Source: Solirubrobacteraceae bacterium
Lineage (GTDB): Bacteria > Actinomycetota > Thermoleophilia > Solirubrobacterales > Solirubrobacteraceae
DNA: 64,000 bases
Direction: 5' to 3'
Assembly: GCA_029263125.1 (NCBI GenBank)
Contig: JAJCYD010000043.1
Span: forward strand, 62,001 to 126,000
Shown one piece after another: positions 1,759 to 36,537 of the stretch (within the stretch, counting starts at the first letter, position 1; every line of letters starts with the position of its first letter). The notes under the pieces were generated by a model. It was not told the DNA's origin and ran no database searches. It saw only the letters and a list, made by a program, of their open reading frames with translations. The position numbers were made by a program, and so were the translations under genes.

Positions 1759-2559
1759 GTGACCTACCTCTTTCGTCCGGACAACTGGGAGTGGCTGATC
1801 ACCGGCCGCAACGCGCGGTTCATCTTCGAGGGCTTTCTCGTCAATCTTCAGCTCGCGCTGATCGCGATGGTCTTCTCGCTGATCTTCGGTCTGGGGCTTG
1901 CGTTGCTGCGCATCTCTCCGTGGGGGCCGGTCCGCTTCGCGACCGGCCTGTGGATCGACCTGTGGCGCAACCTGCCGCTGATCCTCGTGATCCTGTACTT
2001 CGCGATCGCGATGCCCGAGTCCTGGCGCGACGCCTACCAGACCGCGGCGCCGGGCTTCCTGCCCGACGTGCTTCAGCGCGGTCGCGTGTTCGCGGCGCTG
2101 CTCGCGCTCGTGCTCTACAACTCGGCGGTGCTGGCGGAGATCATGCGCGCGGGCATCCAGTCACTTGACCGCGGCCAGGGTGAGGCAGCGACCGCGCTGG
2201 GATTGACCTACGTCCAGCGCATGCGTCTCGTGATCCTCCCGCAAGGCCTGCGGCGGATGGTGCCGGCGACGATCTCCCAGCTGATCACCCTGAACAAGGA
2301 CACGACGCTCGTGAGCATCATCGGCATCCAGGAGGTGATGCGCCAGGGCCGGATCCTCACCGGCAACAACTTCTTCGGCGGCGTACAGGCGCCGCTGCTG
2401 CATGTGCTGCTGTTCATCGGGGCACTGTTCATCGTGACCAACCTGCTGCTGTCGCGACTGTCGCGGCGCCTGGAGATTGCCGAGCAGCTGCGCACCGGCA
2501 CGACGCTTGAGCCCATCAGCGGCCTGGAGGATCAGGTGCGGCCGGTCCAGGCGCGCTGA
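1759..2559 (+). CDS. Amino-acid ABC transporter permease (second)
   Basis: 266 residues, GTG start 6 bp after the first permease. The same HisM/GlnP family is indicated by IDLWRNLPLILVILY (near residue 70), the EAA loop GEAATALGLTYVQRMRLVILPQ (near 140-162) and NKDTTLVSIIGIQEVM. Between the first helices there is a periplasmic insertion of about 20 residues that the first permease lacks. With the ATPase, the binding protein and the first permease it completes the importer. No transcription terminator is obvious before the cupin gene 29 bp downstream. Confidence 0.93.
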   Translation: MTYLFRPDNWEWLITGRNARFIFEGFLVNLQLALIAMVFSLIFGLGLALLRISPWGPVRFATGLWIDLWRNLPLILVILYFAIAMPESWRDAYQTAAPGFLPDVLQRGRVFAALLALVLYNSAVLAEIMRAGIQSLDRGQGEAATALGLTYVQRMRLVILPQGLRRMVPATISQLITLNKDTTLVSIIGIQEVMRQGRILTGNNFFGGVQAPLLHVLLFIGALFIVTNLLLSRLSRRLEIAEQLRTGTTLEPISGLEDQVRPVQAR

Positions 2560-2587
2560 CGCTGTTCGATTCGGAGGTTTGCCTGCC

Positions 2588-3085
2588 ATGCCCGACGTAT
2601 CCATCCATGACCCCGAGTGGGACTTCGACGAGTCCGGCACGCCGTATCACGCCCGCGCGATGCTGCTCGGCCCGCGGATCGGCGCGCAGCGGCTCGGGGC
2701 CACGCTGTATGAGCTGGACCCGGGCGGGGCGGTGAGCCCGTACCACTGCCACGAGGCGAACGAGGAGATGCTCGTGGTTCTTGAGGGAGCGCCGACGCTG
2801 CGCACGCCGGAGGGGTCTCGCGATCTGGAGGCCGGCGCCGTGGTGGCCTTCGTCTGCGGTCCCGATGGAGCGCACCGCATCTCCAATCGCTCGGACGCTG
2901 CGGCGCGGGTGCTCATGGTCTCCACGCAGCGCTATCCGGAGATCGCCGAGCACCTCGACACCGGCGCGACGCTGGCGATGTCCGCGCCGGGCGCGGGCAA
3001 GGTGTTCCCGGCGGGGGTCGATGTCGACGTCATGACCGCCGTGGTGTCGGCGATGCAGCGCGGAGCGGAGCTGCAGGAGGAGTAG
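2588..3085 (+). CDS. Cupin-domain protein
   Basis: 165 residues. I chose the ATG at 2588 because a GGAGGT ribosome-binding site lies 8 bp upstream (2574-2579); an earlier in-frame ATG at 2477 would overlap the permease by 83 bp. The core is a single conserved beta-barrel. Motif 1 is GAVSPYHCHEANEEMLVVLEG (metal-ligand His-x-His and Glu), and motif 2 is around GPDGAHRISNRSD with the third His. The reaction is unknown; small cupins of this type include sugar epimerases, dioxygenases and binding proteins. It may be transcribed with the transporter but need not be functionally linked. Confidence 0.8.
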   Translation: MPDVSIHDPEWDFDESGTPYHARAMLLGPRIGAQRLGATLYELDPGGAVSPYHCHEANEEMLVVLEGAPTLRTPEGSRDLEAGAVVAFVCGPDGAHRISNRSDAAARVLMVSTQRYPEIAEHLDTGATLAMSAPGAGKVFPAGVDVDVMTAVVSAMQRGAELQEE

Positions 3086-3136
3086 CCCCGCGCGAGGATG
3101 CTGCGGCTCGCCGTGCCCCAGCGACCGCGGGTCGCG

Positions 3137-3142
3137 CATAAT
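3137..3142 (+). promoter_or_regulatory. Putative -10 box of a leaderless transcript (LtrA gene)
   Basis: CATAAT lies 8 nt before the GTG at 3151, the spacing expected if transcription starts at the start codon. No Shine-Dalgarno sequence is present. This is one of about a dozen such arrangements in the window. Confidence 0.4.
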
Positions 3143-3150
3143 CGCTGCTC

Positions 3151-4389
3151 GTGAGCGCGACGTCGCAGAGCCACGGCCGCCGGCGAATGAGCGGCCGCGA
3201 TCCCCACGCGGAGCACCGCTCGGCCACGCCGCTTGAGCTGCTCTACGACCTGACCTTCGTCGTCGCCTTCGGGTTCGCCGCCGACGAGCTCGCGCACGCC
3301 GTCGCCGACGACCACCTTCGCACGGGGATGGTCGGCTTCGCGTTCGCGCTGTTCGCCGTCAGCTGGGCGTGGATCAACTACACGTGGTTCGCCTCCGCAT
3401 ACGACACCGACGACTGGGTCTGCCGGCTGGCCGTCATCGTGCAGATGGTCGGCGTCGTGATCCTCGCGCTGGGCCTCGAGCAGGTCTTCGCGTCGATCCA
3501 GGAAGGCGACCGGCTCGACAACGGCGTGGTGGTGCTCGGCTACGTCGTCATGCGCCTGTCGATGATCTTCCTGTGGATCCGGGCCGCGCGCCACGACCCC
3601 GAGCGCGCCCGGGCGGCGATGACCTACGTGTGGACGCTCGCGGTGGCCCAGGTGGGCTGGGTGGCGCTGGTCTTCGCCGACCCGCGGCTGGAGGCGGCGT
3701 TTGCCTGTACGGCGGCGCTCGTCGCGCTCGAGGTCTCTGGTCCGCTCATCGCCGAGCGGCGCTTCGGCGGGACGCCGTGGCACGCCCACCACATCGCCGA
3801 GCGCTACGGGCTGCTCGTGATCATCACGCTCGGCGAGGGGATCATCGGCACGGTCGCGGCGATGAACGCGGTCGTCCACGGCGAGAACGGATGGACGGTC
3901 ACGGTGGCGGTCGTCGGCCTGGCGGGCGTCGGCCTGACGTTCGCCGCCTGGTGGAGCTACTTCGCGATCCCGTGGGCCGACGTCATCCACCGCCACCGCG
4001 AGCGATCGTTCGGCTGGGGATACGGGCACCTCGCCGTGTTCGGCGGGCTGGCCGCGATGGGCGGCGGGCTGCACGTCGCCGCCTTCTACCTGGAGGACGA
4101 GGCGAAGATCGGCGTGACGGGCGTCGTGCTCAGCGTCGCCATTCCGGTCGCGATCTTCCTGTTCGCGCTCTACGCGCTGTACACGACGCTCATGCGCGAG
4201 TCCGATCCGTTCCACCTGCTCCTGCTCGCGCTGACGGCGGCCGTCCTGGCGCTGGCCGTGGGGCTTGCCGTGGCGGGCGCGAGCATCGCCGTCTGCCTCG
4301 TGGTCCTCATGTTCGCGCCGATCGTGACCGTGGTCGGCTTTGAGACGCTCGGCCACAAGCACCTGGCCCACGCGCTGGACCGCCAGTAG
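3151..4389 (+). CDS. Low temperature requirement protein A (LtrA) family membrane protein
   Basis: 412 residues with a soluble N-terminal stretch of about 25 residues and then roughly ten hydrophobic segments. The diagnostic N-terminal element TPLELLYDLTFVVAFGFAAD (from about residue 26) and the HHIAERYGLLVIITLGEGII element near residue 220 are hallmarks of the LtrA family. The biochemical role of the family is unknown; the name comes from a Listeria cold-growth mutant. An in-frame ATG at 3187 is an alternative start. The GTG at 3151 is preferred because a CATAAT hexamer lies 8 nt upstream. It stands alone between unrelated genes. Confidence 0.9.
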   Translation: MSATSQSHGRRRMSGRDPHAEHRSATPLELLYDLTFVVAFGFAADELAHAVADDHLRTGMVGFAFALFAVSWAWINYTWFASAYDTDDWVCRLAVIVQMVGVVILALGLEQVFASIQEGDRLDNGVVVLGYVVMRLSMIFLWIRAARHDPERARAAMTYVWTLAVAQVGWVALVFADPRLEAAFACTAALVALEVSGPLIAERRFGGTPWHAHHIAERYGLLVIITLGEGIIGTVAAMNAVVHGENGWTVTVAVVGLAGVGLTFAAWWSYFAIPWADVIHRHRERSFGWGYGHLAVFGGLAAMGGGLHVAAFYLEDEAKIGVTGVVLSVAIPVAIFLFALYALYTTLMRESDPFHLLLLALTAAVLALAVGLAVAGASIAVCLVVLMFAPIVTVVGFETLGHKHLAHALDRQ

Positions 4390-16920: not shown

Positions 16921-17683
16921 GGCGGGTGTGCCCGAGCCGCTCCTCCTTCTGCATGGCTTCACGCAGACGGGTCGCGGCTGGGACGAGGTGGTGGCTCGCC
17001 TCGCGGGCGAAACCTACCGGCCGGTGGCTCCCGACCTTCGCGGCCACGGCTCGGCGGGGGCGCTGCGACCGATCGACATGGCTGCGTGCGTGGACGACGT
17101 CCTCGGTCTCGCCGAGCGCCGTTTCGCGCTCGCCGGCTACTCGATGGGCGGGCGGATCGCGCTGCATGTCGCGCTCGCGGCGCCCGAGCGCGTCAGCCGG
17201 CTCGTGCTCGTCTCGACGACGGCCGGCATCGAGGATGCCTCACAGCGCTCGGCGCGACGCGCAGCCGACGAAGAGCTCGCCGGATGGATGGAGGACCACA
17301 CGATCGAGCAGGTCGCCGAGCACTGGGGTGCACAGGCCCTGTTCGCCGGTCAGGCGCCGCAGGTGTCAGACGCCGCGCGCGCCGACAGGCTGCACAACCA
17401 GCCCGAGCACCTCGCGGCGGCGTTGCGAGGGATCGGAACCGGCGTCATGGCGCCGCTCTGGGAGCGGCTCGGCGTGCTCTCGATGCCTGCCACCGTGCTG
17501 GCCGGCGAGGAGGACCAGAAGTTCGTGGCGCTGGGACGCCGGCTGGCGGAGGCGCTGCCACGGGCGACGCTGGTCGTCGTCTCCGGTGCGGGCCACGCGC
17601 TGACCCTCGAGGCTCCGGCCAGCGTCGCCGCCGCGATCACGCCGTGCTCAGCTGGCGAAGTCCAGGGCCTTCAGCAGTCGTAG
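16919..17683 (+). CDS. menH: SHCHC synthase (alpha/beta hydrolase of menaquinone synthesis)
   Basis: 254 residues. The alpha/beta-hydrolase fold shows LLLLHGFTQTGRGWDEV (oxyanion loop) near residue 5 and the nucleophile elbow GYSMGG near residue 77, the form typical of MenH. The acid is near LAGEEDQKF and the His is in SGAGHALTLEAP. It removes pyruvate from the MenD product. The assignment rests on family motifs plus its head-to-head position with menD. A GTG at 16928 is an alternative start. The 3' end overlaps the convergent M23-peptidase gene by 36 bp. Confidence 0.85.
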   Translation: MAGVPEPLLLLHGFTQTGRGWDEVVARLAGETYRPVAPDLRGHGSAGALRPIDMAACVDDVLGLAERRFALAGYSMGGRIALHVALAAPERVSRLVLVSTTAGIEDASQRSARRAADEELAGWMEDHTIEQVAEHWGAQALFAGQAPQVSDAARADRLHNQPEHLAAALRGIGTGVMAPLWERLGVLSMPATVLAGEEDQKFVALGRRLAEALPRATLVVVSGAGHALTLEAPASVAAAITPCSAGEVQGLQQS

Positions 17684-18454
17684 CGGGTCGACGGGTGCGC
17701 CGCCGGCTCGCCACCCCGGCGCGGTCCACAGCTCGAAATGCAGGTGACATGCGCTTGCTCGGCCCGTCTGCCCGACCTCGCCGAGGGGATCGCCGGCGGC
17801 GACGCGGCGTCCTCGCTTCACGGTCGCCCGCTTGAGCATGTGCATGTACACCTGGCTCGTACCGTCGTCGGACGTGATGACGACGTAGTTGCCGGCCGCC
17901 GAGTGGTAGCGCGTGGAGGTCACGGTACCCGCCACGGCCGCGACGAGCGGCGTGGCGCAGTCGGCGAGGACATCCTGACCCTGGTGGCCGCGCCCCGCAC
18001 CGAAGCGGTTGATCGCCGTTCCGTAGTCGTGCTCGCCCCGGATCGGGAACACGCCGGCGAGCGGCCCGCTCGTGGGCACGAGCGGCGGTGGCGTGGGCTT
18101 GGGCAGGATCCGCAGTCGCGGGCTGGTCGCCGAGATCGCCGAGGCGATGACGCGCACCCTGCCGCTGCGCGCACGCGACGGCACCCTGACCAGGACGCGA
18201 TGCGGGCTGGCGGTCCTCGGTCGCACGCGGCGGTCGTCGCGCTTGCCGCGCTTGCCCAGGAAGACGACGGTCCGCGTGCTGTCGAGATGCACGCCGCTCA
18301 GCCGCAGCAGCGATCCGCGCGGACAGCGGGTCTTCTCGCCGGTGGTGCATTTCAAGCCCGTGACCGCGGGGTACTTGACGCTCGCGCCGCCGCTGCGCGC
18401 GCTGTGCGCGGAATCGGCGCGCGCCGAGGCAGTGCCCAGCAGCGTCAGCAGCAC
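17648..18454 (-). CDS. M23-family peptidase, paralog 1 (secreted; start uncertain)
   Basis: 268 residues from a GTG at 18454, but homology with paralog 3 runs upstream to about 18505, where paralog 3 has ATG and this copy has ATC; a GGGGAG sequence precedes it. The signal-peptide region is followed by an IPT/TIG-like domain (KYPAVTGLKCTTGEKTRCPRG ... TASPHRV ... ISATSPRLRIL) and a Pro-rich linker. The C-terminal LytM domain has zinc-site motifs GHQGQD and CHLHFELW. It probably cleaves peptidoglycan cross-bridges. The gene is convergent with menH and overlaps it by 36 bp. The leader upstream looks like a degenerate c-di-AMP riboswitch. Confidence 0.85.
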   Translation of the reverse strand: MLLTLLGTASARADSAHSARSGGASVKYPAVTGLKCTTGEKTRCPRGSLLRLSGVHLDSTRTVVFLGKRGKRDDRRVRPRTASPHRVLVRVPSRARSGRVRVIASAISATSPRLRILPKPTPPPLVPTSGPLAGVFPIRGEHDYGTAINRFGAGRGHQGQDVLADCATPLVAAVAGTVTSTRYHSAAGNYVVITSDDGTSQVYMHMLKRATVKRGRRVAAGDPLGEVGQTGRASACHLHFELWTAPGWRAGGAPVDPLRLLKALDFAS

Positions 18455-18514
18455 GGCAGCACCGCAGGCGCGGCTGAGACTTCGATGGCGATCCCCGTAG
18501 ATGATGCGCTCCCC

Positions 18515-18660
18515 GGTCTGTCCGGCCTACGAGGACACGGCTGGAATCCCACGCCAGACTGCGCGTGCTCCGACCGACCCTAGTTCGCTTCCCCCCGGAC
18601 GACGACAGGCTCCCCCGCCCTCACTGATAGTCGTTCAGCGAGGCTCGGCACTTCGAAGCG
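18515..18660 (-). promoter_or_regulatory. Degenerate cyclic-di-AMP (ydaO/yuaA) riboswitch upstream of paralog 1
   Basis: Read on the minus strand, the leader keeps GUGCCGAG at the 5' end, GGCGGGGGAGCC in the middle and CCUCGUAGGC at the 3' end, in the same order and spacing as the two intact copies downstream. The CCCGUCAGCUCA part of the 3' core is lost and the GGGGCGAAUC element is altered. A TATCGT hexamer at 18669-18664 is a likely -10 box. Ligand binding is doubtful. Confidence 0.6.
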
Positions 18661-18750
18661 GGCACGATACAGTGGCGCGGCTCCAGATGTCGCGTTCGTT
18701 CTCAGACGCGTGTGAGCCGAATCGGGTCCAAGACCTGTGACGAGGCGACG

Positions 18751-19545
18751 TCATGTGGGCATCGCGTCGAGGGCCTTCAGCATCGGCAGCGGGTCCACCG
18801 GCGCTCCTCCCTCATACCAGCCGGGTGCCGTCCACAGCTCGAAATGCAGGTGGCAGGCGCTCGCGCGACCGGTCTGGCCGACGTCCCCCAACGGCTGCCC
18901 GGAGGCGACGCGATCGCCCTTCTTGACGATCGCGGGCTTGAGCATGTGCATGTACGCCTGACTGGTGCCGTCGTCAGCCTTGATGACGACGTAGTTGCCC
19001 GCCCGCGCCTGGAACTTGGTGAGCGTGACGGTTCCCGCGACCGCCGCGACGAGCGGGGTGGCGCAGTCGGCGAGGACGTCCTGGCCCTGGTGATCGCGTC
19101 CGCCACCGAAGGCGTTGATCGCCGTGCCGTAATCGTGGGCGCCTCGGATCGGAAACGCGCCTCCCAGCGGACCCGACGCCGCGATGGGCGGCGGGACCGG
19201 CTTGGGCAGGACCCGCAGCCTGGGGCTGGTTGCCGACATGTCGTCGGTGATCACGCGCAGCCGGCCGCTGTATGCCCGCTGCGGAACCTCGACGATGACG
19301 CGATGCGGGCTCGCGGTCTGAGGACGCGCGCGACGGTCGTCGCTCTTGCCACGCTTGCCCAGGAAGATCACGGTGCTCGTGGCGCCCAGATGCACGCCGC
19401 TGAGTCGCAGGACCGAGCCGCGCGGGCAGCGAGTGGTCTCGCCCGTACCACACTTGAAGGACTTGACCGCCGGAACCGCGACGCTGGCACCGCCGGTGCG
19501 CGCGCTGGCGGGGGCCGATGCCGCGAGCGCGATCAGGATCGACAC
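18751..19545 (-). CDS. M23-family peptidase, paralog 2 (secreted; start uncertain)
   Basis: 264 residues from a GTG at 19545; this gives a signal peptide with almost no basic n-region. The homologous upstream stretch (FTVLHRPLGAALCV) is in frame up to an ACG at 19590, the position of the ATG in paralog 3, with a CTG before it. The domains match the other copies: IPT/TIG-like region with KCGTGETTRCPRG, Pro-rich linker and LytM domain with zinc motifs DHQGQD and CHLHFELW. It is a predicted extracellular peptidoglycan endopeptidase. An intact c-di-AMP-type riboswitch precedes it. Confidence 0.88.
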   Translation of the reverse strand: MSILIALAASAPASARTGGASVAVPAVKSFKCGTGETTRCPRGSVLRLSGVHLGATSTVIFLGKRGKSDDRRARPQTASPHRVIVEVPQRAYSGRLRVITDDMSATSPRLRVLPKPVPPPIAASGPLGGAFPIRGAHDYGTAINAFGGGRDHQGQDVLADCATPLVAAVAGTVTLTKFQARAGNYVVIKADDGTSQAYMHMLKPAIVKKGDRVASGQPLGDVGQTGRASACHLHFELWTAPGWYEGGAPVDPLPMLKALDAMPT

Positions 19546-19599
19546 GCACAGCGCGGCGCCTAGGGGTCGATGAAGGACAGTGAAGATCGTCAGCTCCCG

Positions 19600-19747
19600 T
19601 GGGTTTCGCGCCTACGAGGTGAGCTGACGGGCTCGCGCGCTCTGCAGCGCGCTACGGCTCAGACCAGCGGCCGATTCGCCCCGAACTACTGGGTCCCCCG
19701 CTCTCGCCGGAACTGGTCCAGAGAGACTCGGCACATCAACTGCGCAG
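19600..19747 (-). promoter_or_regulatory. Cyclic-di-AMP (ydaO/yuaA-type) riboswitch upstream of paralog 2
   Basis: On the minus strand the conserved blocks occur in consensus order: GUGCCGAG, AGCGGGGGACCC, GGGGCGAAUC, then CCCGUCAGCUCACCUCGUAG followed by GCG. The ends UGCGC and GCGCG can pair as P1. TACGCT at 19753-19748 is a likely -10 box, so the RNA would start at the aptamer. The class binds c-di-AMP and in actinobacteria commonly controls cell-wall hydrolase genes. Confidence 0.88.
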
Positions 19748-19784
19748 AGCGTAACGGTCTGCGCGGCGGATGAAGCCCGATGCG

Positions 19785-19890
19785 CCACGTTCTGCCTGGG
19801 CGACGCTGCCCGTTTGCCGCAACGACCGGCTTTTTCGTCGCCGGTCGCGCGGCTCGAGGCGCCGGCCAGCGCCGCCGCCGCGATCGAAGC
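19785..19890 (+). pseudogene. menH-like 3'-end fragment beside M23 paralog 3
   Basis: Bases 19853-19885 match the menH 3' end (17606-17638) at 31 of 33 positions, and one plus-strand frame reads ARLEAPASAAAAIEAEP against menH HALTLEAPASVAAAI. A shorter match (GGGCGACGCTG) extends upstream. The fragment is not open as a gene. It sits next to the 3' end of paralog 3, just as real menH sits at the 3' end of paralog 1. Confidence 0.45.
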
Positions 19891-19908
19891 CGAGCCGATG
19901 GCTCGTCG

Positions 19909-20775
19909 TCACTTGCGCTGGGCAGCGCTTGCGTCGAGGGCCTTCAGGAGCTCCAACGGGTCGACCGGCGCTCCCCCCGTATACCAGCCGGGCGCGGTCC
20001 ACAGCTCGAAATGCAGGTGGCAGGCGCTCGCGCGGCCGGTCTGCCCGACGACGCCCAGCGGCTGGCCGGCAACGACGCGGTCGCCCTTCTTGACGATCGC
20101 GGGTGCGCGCATGTGCATGTAGGCCTGGCTGGCGTCATCCTTGGACTGGATCACGGTGTAGTTGCCGGCCCGCGACTGGTACTTGGCCAGCGTGACCGTT
20201 CCCGCGACGGCCGCGACCACGGGCGTGCCACAGTCGGCGAGGATGTCCTGGCCCTTGTGGTTGCGTCCGCCGCCGAAGGCGTTGACCGCCGTCCCGAAGT
20301 CGTGGTCGCCCTGGACGGGGAAGATGGCGGCCAGCGGGCCGGTCGTCGGGATGGGCGGCGGAGTGGGCTTGGGGAGGACCCGCAACCGCGGGCTCGTGGC
20401 GGAGCTGTCGTCGGAGACGACGCGAAGCCTGCCGCTGCGTGCGCGGCTGGGAACCTCGACGAGCACGCGGTGCGGGCTGGCGGCCGTCGGCTTCACGCGA
20501 CGATCGTCGCGCTTGCCGCGCCTGCCGAGGAAGATCACGGTGCTGGTGTCGCGGAGATACTCGCCGCTCAGCCGCAGGATCGACCCGCGCGGGCAGCGCT
20601 TGGTCTCGCCGGTGCCGCACTTGAACGACTTGACCTTGGGGACCGCGACGCTCGCACCGCCCGTGCGGGCGCTGCGCACGCTGTGCGCCTGCGCCGAGGC
20701 GGATGCCACGAGCAGCATGAGAACCGCCACGCCGAGGGCGTGGCCGAACGGTCGGTGAAGAGCGCGGGCGATCAT
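19909..20775 (-). CDS. M23-family peptidase, paralog 3 (secreted)
   Basis: 288 residues, and the only one of the three copies with an ATG at the homologous start. A signal peptide (basic MIARALHRPFGHALG, core, AQA cleavage region) precedes an IPT/TIG-like domain (about residues 43-135), a Pro-rich linker and the LytM/M23 domain (about 150-285). Predicted zinc ligands are His173 and Asp177 (NHKGQD) and His255 of CHLHFELW, with His253 catalytic. It is probably a peptidoglycan endopeptidase or a LytM-fold regulator of other hydrolases. An intact c-di-AMP-type riboswitch occupies the leader. Confidence 0.92.
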   Translation of the reverse strand: MIARALHRPFGHALGVAVLMLLVASASAQAHSVRSARTGGASVAVPKVKSFKCGTGETKRCPRGSILRLSGEYLRDTSTVIFLGRRGKRDDRRVKPTAASPHRVLVEVPSRARSGRLRVVSDDSSATSPRLRVLPKPTPPPIPTTGPLAAIFPVQGDHDFGTAVNAFGGGRNHKGQDILADCGTPVVAAVAGTVTLAKYQSRAGNYTVIQSKDDASQAYMHMRAPAIVKKGDRVVAGQPLGVVGQTGRASACHLHFELWTAPGWYTGGAPVDPLELLKALDASAAQRK

Positions 20776-20782
20776 CAGTTCG

Positions 20783-20930
20783 TGTGGGTTCGCGCCTACG
20801 AGGTGAGCTGACGGGCTCGCACGCTTGGCTGCGCGCTACGGCTTCAAAGCGAAGCCGATTCGCCCCAACGAACTGGTTCCCCCGCTCTCCCGGGACGGAC
20901 CCGGAGAGACTCGGCACATCAACGGCGCAC
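20783..20930 (-). promoter_or_regulatory. Cyclic-di-AMP (ydaO/yuaA-type) riboswitch upstream of paralog 3
   Basis: Minus-strand RNA shows GUGCCGAGUC, GAGCGGGGGAACC, GGGGCGAAUCGGC and CCCGUCAGCUCACCUCGUAG followed by GCG in consensus order, with GUGCGCC/GGCGCG closing P1. TAGTCT at 20936-20931 is a likely -10 box. The aptamer ends about 10 nt before the ATG at 20775, so control could act on translation initiation as well as transcription. Confidence 0.9.
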
Positions 20931-21023
20931 AGACTAGCGGTCCGGGCGGCGGAGTGTGCCATCGCCATCGAGCTGCGCCTCCGCGTAGGCTGACGTGCAT
21001 CCGACGGATCGTCTGAGCCCCGC

Positions 21024-36408: not shown

Positions 36409-36449
36409 GCGCGAGGGAGTTGGATCGCCGGCGGCCCGGTACACTCATG

Positions 36450-36532
36450 CGGCCGTCGTGACTGGCGTTCGAGGTGGGGATCACCACCGGGAAGCGACGG
36501 AGCAGCGCCCTGCCGCACGCCTGGGCATCAGT
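36450..36532 (+). promoter_or_regulatory. ZTP (pfl-type) riboswitch upstream of serC
   Basis: The RNA contains the class hallmarks in order: GUGACUGGCG, GUGGGGAUCACCACCGGGAA followed by GCGACGG, a short variable stem, then ACGCCUGGGCA. CCGUCG (about 36453) pairs with CGACGG (about 36495) as P1, and GUGG pairs with CCAC inside it. A likely -10 box, TACACT at 36440-36445, places transcription start at the aptamer. GAGGA at 36552-36556 is the serC ribosome-binding site. ZTP riboswitches sense the folate-stress alarmone ZTP and control one-carbon and purine genes. Confidence 0.85.
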
Positions 36533-36537
36533 CCTGA

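What the first reader, a model, noticed from the sequence alone, without database searches (positions are those of the whole stretch)
17648..20930. Three tandem M23 peptidase paralogs, each behind its own cyclic-di-AMP-type riboswitch
Seen: three minus-strand genes with the same signal peptide, IPT/TIG-like domain and LytM domain, each preceded by a leader with ydaO/yuaA blocks (GUGCCGAG, GCGGGGGA, GGGGCGAAUC, GUCAGCUCACCUCGUAGGC) and a -10 hexamer at the aptamer's 5' end. Known: this riboswitch class binds c-di-AMP and often controls wall hydrolases in actinobacteria. Inference: the array amplifies one c-di-AMP-controlled wall-remodelling output. A tandem triple with one aptamer per gene is unusual.
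Basis: partly seen in the sequence, partly recalled or inferred. Interest (0 to 1): 0.75.

Follow-up and report, generated by a model that had tools for sequence, protein, structure and literature searches.

The report
Tandem wall-enzyme genes, two riboswitched
An actinobacterium carries three side-by-side copies of a cell-wall-cutting enzyme gene; two sit behind genuine c-di-AMP RNA sensors, while the third keeps only the outer frame of the sensor and has probably escaped that control, so this is a known regulatory theme seen while duplicating and decaying.

Summary
The three genes are real: minus-strand paralogs (68-76% identical) with an IPT/TIG-like and an intact M23 domain. Copies 1 and 2 have full RF00379 c-di-AMP aptamers (67.6 and 65.9 bits; cut-off 38). 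Copy 3 has no RF00379 match even at E=10. A lineage-specific covariance model shows that its leader is homologous (37.4 bits, E 2e-7), but only in the outer shell; the inner core is replaced (P4 broken, the near-invariant GAGCCCGUCAGCU block lost). Copy 3 is therefore predicted to be blind to c-di-AMP, so 'one aptamer per gene' and 'amplified output' hold for two genes of three. The copies form one clade (100/99), are under purifying selection and arose by tandem duplication: a piece of the neighbouring menH gene lies between copies 2 and 1. Relatives have one copy with one switch; a sister genus has an independent tandem pair of switch + wall hydrolase. Five of the genome's six other switches precede wall hydrolases. 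Side findings: this lineage lost the family's loop-5/ribosome-site pseudoknot, and copies 2 and 3 lack ATG/GTG/TTG at copy 1's start site. Known theme, unusual arrangement, modest interest.

The parts
20777..20926 (-). c-di-AMP aptamer of copy 1
   Evidence: RF00379 67.6 bits, full length; lineage model R1 132.9 bits
19909..20775 (-). copy 1: secreted IPT/TIG-like + M23 (LytM) peptidase, ATG start
19594..19743 (-). c-di-AMP aptamer of copy 2
   Evidence: RF00379 65.9 bits, full length; R1 124.3 bits
18751..19593 (-). copy 2: same architecture; no ATG/GTG/TTG in frame before 19545; CTG 19593, ACG 19590 and ATC 19587 are candidate starts
18508..18660 (-). leader of copy 3: outer shell of the aptamer kept, ligand core replaced
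   Evidence: no RF00379 match at E=10; R1 37.4 bits, shell only; shell 23/25 against core 20/37 conserved positions
17648..18502 (-). copy 3: same architecture, catalytic residues kept; candidate ATC start at 18502, first canonical start GTG 18454
20931..20936 (-). -10-like TAGTCT, copy 1
19748..19753 (-). -10-like TACGCT, copy 2
18664..18669 (-). -10-like TATCGT, copy 3
19853..19895 (+). remnant of the menH 3' end (88% identical to 17606-17647), footprint of tandem duplication
   Evidence: blastn 52.7 bits, E 9e-12; best of 143 control stretches 28.3 bits
20776..20875 (-). copy 1 possible anti-aptamer helix: CAGUUCGUUGGG (20875-20864) with CCCACACGAACUG (20788-20776), next to the AUG
   Evidence: -18.0 kcal/mol; 0 of 300 shuffled tails and 0 of 13 other tails as good; hypothesis only
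19588..19629 (-). copy 2 possible core/ribosome-site helix: CGUCAGCUC (19629-19621) with GAGCUGACG (19596-19588), 9 perfect pairs
   Evidence: p<1/200 against shuffled tails for this leader, but 61 leaders were tested; hypothesis only

Best explanation
A self-contained cassette (promoter, c-di-AMP aptamer, secreted IPT/TIG-LytM peptidoglycan hydrolase) was duplicated twice in tandem in this lineage. Copies 1 and 2 still carry ligand-competent aptamers and are controlled by c-di-AMP, most likely at translation initiation, because the aptamer ends about 20 nt before the start and no terminator lies between; the expected default is OFF at high c-di-AMP, as shown for C. glutamicum nlpC. Copy 3 kept its promoter-like site and the outer shell of the leader but lost the ligand-binding core, so it is expressed without c-di-AMP control. 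The array thus pairs two switch-controlled hydrolases with one uncoupled paralog. Shown here: anatomy, homology, shell-versus-core difference, clade, selection, duplication footprint. Inferred: ligand binding by copies 1-2, its lack in copy 3, translational OFF logic.
For: RF00379 full-length hits for copies 1-2. Copy 3 is homologous only in the shell; conserved positions kept 23/25 in the shell against 20/37 inside, Fisher p 0.0017; P2 in copy 3 keeps pairing through two double changes, P4 is broken. The copy 3 core motif occurs nowhere else as a riboswitch in 232 genomes of the order. The copies are one clade, 100/99 support, copy 3 on the longest branch. Pairwise dN/dS 0.28-0.37, catalytic HxxxD and HxH kept. 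The menH remnant between copies 2 and 1 agrees with the tree (c1,(c2,c3)). Close orthologs are single copy with one RF00379 each. The genome has a DAC-domain diadenylate cyclase and five of six other RF00379 switches precede wall hydrolases. No terminator-like site on the minus strand. Translational OFF control by a ydaO-type switch was shown in C. glutamicum (PMC9960051).
Against: The shell of copy 3 is conserved beyond neutral expectation (fourfold sites differ at 43-49%), so that leader may still do something. The lineage has lost the loop-5/tail pseudoknot that most family members have, so OFF logic cannot be assumed; the alternative helices found in copies 1 and 2 would, if real, favour ON logic. 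No expression or binding data. The c2+c3 grouping has only 83/76 support.
Confidence: 0.72

Rival explanations
1. All three leaders are working c-di-AMP riboswitches and the array simply multiplies one c-di-AMP-controlled output. Copy 3 would be a divergent but still binding aptamer.
For: Copy 3 keeps P1, P2, GCGGGGGA and CCUCGUAGGC and its promoter-like site.
Against: No RF00379 match at E=10; loss of the GAGCCCGUCAGCU block kept by all or nearly all of 22 aligned family aptamers; P4 pairing broken.
Confidence: 0.1
2. The copy 3 leader is a re-purposed sensor: the outer frame is kept by selection and a new core binds another ligand or a fixed structure tunes translation.
For: Shell conserved 23/25 and P2 maintained by double changes while the core is almost fully rewritten; gene under purifying selection.
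Against: A single known example; core motif not found as a riboswitch in 232 genomes of the order; the leader does not fold better than shuffles (z 0.41).
Confidence: 0.1
3. In this lineage copies 1 and 2 are ON switches: without ligand, aptamer segments pair with the ribosome site or start; c-di-AMP binding frees it.
For: Loss of the family's loop-5/tail pseudoknot; strong alternative helix in copy 1; nine-pair core/ribosome-site match in copy 2 and eight in G036.
Against: The two copies would use different helices; core/tail matches across 61 leaders are no commoner than chance (4 at p<0.05); all tested relatives are OFF switches (PMC9960051, PMC10117811).
Confidence: 0.15

Closest known systems
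C. glutamicum nlpC c-di-AMP riboswitch (PMC9960051)
   Same: RF00379-type aptamer ahead of a secreted wall peptidase gene, no canonical terminator, actinobacterium
   Different: Single gene; NlpC/P60, not M23; there a CTCC stretch is proposed to pair with GGAG of the ribosome site, while the comparable loop-5 pairing is absent in copies 1-2
Streptomyces rpfA and other ydaO-controlled wall hydrolases (PMC10117811)
   Same: Several wall hydrolases per genome, each behind its own c-di-AMP switch
   Different: Not described there as a tandem array of paralogs, and no gutted switch described
Tandem c-di-AMP riboswitch doublets (PMC9481103)
   Same: More than one RF00379 aptamer within a short stretch
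   Different: There two aptamers in one leader act on one gene; here one leader per coding sequence
Tandem RF00379 + transglycosylase-like gene pair in genus g11 (L116, L117)
   Same: Tandemly repeated unit of switch + wall hydrolase in the same family
   Different: Different enzyme, two units, both aptamers over the Rfam cut-off

Membership tests
RF00379 c-di-AMP riboswitch, copies 1 and 2 | covariance-model score over the gathering cut-off, full length | tested here: met
   67.6 and 65.9 bits against 38, model positions 1-134
RF00379 c-di-AMP riboswitch, copies 1 and 2 | binds c-di-AMP | not testable with these tools
   needs in-line probing or ITC
RF00379 c-di-AMP riboswitch, copy 3 | covariance-model score over the gathering cut-off | tested here: not met
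   no match at E=10; homologous to family aptamers only in the outer shell
RF00379 c-di-AMP riboswitch, copy 3 | conserved inner core (GGGGCGAAUC, GUAGCGC, GCGCGAGCCCGUCAGCU, P4) | tested here: not met
   20 of 37 conserved inner positions kept; P4 pairs broken
Peptidase family M23 (PF01551) | profile match over cut-off with HxxxD and HxH zinc/catalytic motifs | tested here: met
   80.6-87.6 bits against 28.7; motifs invariant in the three copies
IPT/TIG domain | profile or fold match | tested here: inconclusive
   no Pfam match; fold match to IPT/TIG-type domains of cyclodextrin glycosyltransferases, Z about 11
Tandem (pseudo-cooperative) riboswitch | two aptamers in one 5' leader acting on one gene | tested here: not met
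   one leader per coding sequence, each with its own -10-like site

The most novel reading that the evidence does not exclude
The copy 3 leader is a c-di-AMP aptamer scaffold whose ligand core was replaced under selection, giving a new RNA sensor or fixed regulatory element born by gene duplication next to its two unchanged siblings.
Probability: 0.1. Interest if true: 0.7.

Novelty: new variant of a known kind. Interest (0 to 1): 0.36.

Why it matters
c-di-AMP control of wall hydrolases in actinobacteria is known. This locus is a natural side-by-side series, two intact switches and one gutted one on paralogous genes. It shows how a duplicated riboswitch can be lost while its gene is kept, and gives an internal control for testing what c-di-AMP control of a wall hydrolase is for.

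Tried and rejected
Assembly duplication: rejected, the copies differ at 24-32% of residues and 40-49% of fourfold sites. A conserved variant class behind copy 3: a pattern search of 232 genomes found only this locus and two places that the lineage model does not recognise. Conserved genomic neighbourhood: none of the menF/menD/menH/PPTase/GH3 neighbours lies near the ortholog in ten relatives. Intrinsic-terminator platform: none on the minus strand. Loop-5 pseudoknot in copies 1-2: absent. Core/ribosome-site pairing as a general mechanism: only 4 of 61 leaders reach p<0.05, about as many as chance gives, so the nine-pair match in copy 2 stays a hypothesis. Free-energy folding of single leaders does not recover the aptamer shell and was not used as evidence. 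A first loop-pairing script captured P4 together with P5 in many leaders and was replaced. The crystal-structure papers of ydaO aptamers and the 2013 discovery paper were not held, so ligand contacts could not be mapped residue by residue.

Full report
Check of the observation. The window lies in a 3.75 Mb genome; the named relatives are mostly Solirubrobacteraceae or other Thermoleophilia assemblies. Three minus-strand reading frames at 17648-20775 encode 68-76% identical proteins with a signal-peptide-like start, an N-terminal domain and a C-terminal M23 peptidase domain. Pfam does not see an IPT/TIG domain, but a predicted model of copy 1 (mean pLDDT 58 overall, about 80 over residues 41-140) matches the IPT/TIG-type domain of cyclodextrin glycosyltransferases at Z about 11, and M23 enzymes such as LytM and lysostaphin (sequence matches to solved M23 enzymes). 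That the matched CGTase domain is of IPT/TIG type is my own knowledge.

Aptamers. Rfam's RF00379 model matches the leaders of copy 1 (67.6 bits) and copy 2 (65.9 bits) over their whole length, against a cut-off of 38. The copy 3 leader is not matched at all, even at E=10. I built a lineage-specific covariance model, R1, from 22 family aptamers without copy 3. It scores 132.9 and 124.3 bits for copies 1 and 2 (which are in the model) and 37.4 bits (E 2e-7 in the whole window) for copy 3, but in copy 3 it aligns only the outer shell: P1, the P2 hairpin and the helix GCGGGG/CCUCGU, leaving the inner 65 nt unaligned. Of positions at least 90% conserved in the family, copy 3 keeps 23 of 25 in the shell and 20 of 37 inside (Fisher p 0.0017). 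P2 in copy 3 keeps its pairing through two changes on both sides, while P4 is broken and the block GAGCCCGUCAGCU is lost. Copy 3's leader is therefore homologous but, by inference, does not bind c-di-AMP. The retained shell suggests that this part is, or was until recently, under selection. The two other places in 232 genomes with the copy 3 core pattern are not riboswitches by R1, so no variant class is supported.

Origin. A maximum-likelihood tree puts the three proteins in one clade (100/99), with copy 3 on the longest of their branches and copies 2 and 3 grouped at 83/76. Pairwise dN/dS is 0.28-0.37, and 0.18-0.27 in the M23 part, so all three are under purifying selection. Downstream of copy 1, at 19853-19895, lies a 43-nt stretch 88% identical to the 3' end of the neighbouring menH-like gene (17606-17647): 52.7 bits against a best control of 28.3. 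This is the footprint expected of a tandem duplication whose unit began inside menH, and it separates copy 1 from copies 2 and 3, as in the tree. In the closest relatives the gene is single copy, with one RF00379 switch, in unrelated neighbourhoods. Among 101 family genomes no other shows adjacent full copies of this gene (read from the listed positions; only matches at E<=1e-20 are listed and at most 24 candidates per genome were scored).

How unusual. Each of 146 Solirubrobacteraceae genomes has RF00379, 1 to 12 times. Among 20 well-assembled genomes, two of one genus (G031, G010) carry two RF00379 switches 1.2 kb apart, each ahead of a peptidoglycan-binding + transglycosylase-like gene, named here from the sequence by eye. 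Tandem switch + hydrolase units have thus arisen at least twice in the family. Of the six other RF00379 targets in this genome, five look like wall hydrolases (NlpC/P60-like, M23, transglycosylase-like, by eye and for M23) and one is a small protein of unclear type. A diadenylate cyclase domain is present. Published work: almost all actinobacterial targets of this switch are wall related, and the C. glutamicum nlpC switch acts as a probably translational OFF switch (PMC9960051); S. coelicolor and S. venezuelae have seven and six such hydrolases (PMC10117811). 77 c-di-AMP doublets, two aptamers in a row, are known (PMC9481103), a different architecture.

Mechanism. A TAnnnT hexamer about 20 nt before the aptamer is present in all three leaders and in all 18 leaders examined (12% in shuffles), so each copy probably has its own promoter. 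No terminator-like site lies on this strand, and the aptamer ends about 20 nt before the start, which points to translational control (inference). In most family members loop 5 of the aptamer can pair with the tail that holds the ribosome site (mean score 12.8 against 10.3, sd 0.47, after swapping tails), with varied sequences on both sides, but copies 1 and 2 and their closest orthologs G036 and G064 lack this pairing. Copy 1 has instead a strong alternative helix between 20875-20864 and 20788-20776 (-18 kcal/mol, none of 300 shuffles as good), and copy 2 has nine perfect pairs between the core CGUCAGCUC and GAGCUGACG at its ribosome site. Across the family such core pairings are no commoner than chance (4 of 61 at p<0.05), so these remain hypotheses; if real, they would make ligand binding free the start (ON), opposite to the published OFF logic.

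Start codons. At the position of copy 1's ATG, copy 2 has ACG, copy 3 ATC, G036 ACG and G064 GCG; the following codon is ATC in all five, at a plausible distance from a purine-rich ribosome site in four of them. Copies 2 and 3 have no ATG, GTG or TTG in frame until 19545 and 18454, which would remove the positively charged start of the signal peptide. An AUC or other near-cognate start is possible but unproven.

Verdict. A known theme, with one correction to the finding (two switches, not three) and one informative feature (a paralog whose switch has been gutted while its gene is kept).

Noticed in passing
window 19585-19593 and 18500-18505; L022, L023: Copies 2 and 3 and two orthologs lack ATG/GTG/TTG at the shared start site; an ATC codon is common to all five, hinting at a near-cognate start in a riboswitch-controlled gene.
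   Followed up: partly
L116 about 1951-3325 (+); L117 (minus strand): Independent tandem pair of RF00379 + peptidoglycan-binding/transglycosylase-like genes in genus g11 (G031, G010).
   Followed up: partly
   Followed up: partly
window 36448-36533 (+): ZMP/ZTP riboswitch over the Rfam cut-off (59.9 bits); downstream gene not examined.
   Followed up: no
window 19853-19895: The menH 3'-end remnant is 88% identical to its source, higher than the fourfold-site identity between the copies (51-60%), which may mean a younger event or gene conversion.
   Followed up: no
L001, L082, L083, L084, L088, L090: RF00379 ahead of a small protein beginning MAH/MGH..EA..WWADV (170 aa in L001), with one C-terminal hydrophobic stretch; not an obvious wall hydrolase and conserved in the genus.
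   Followed up: no
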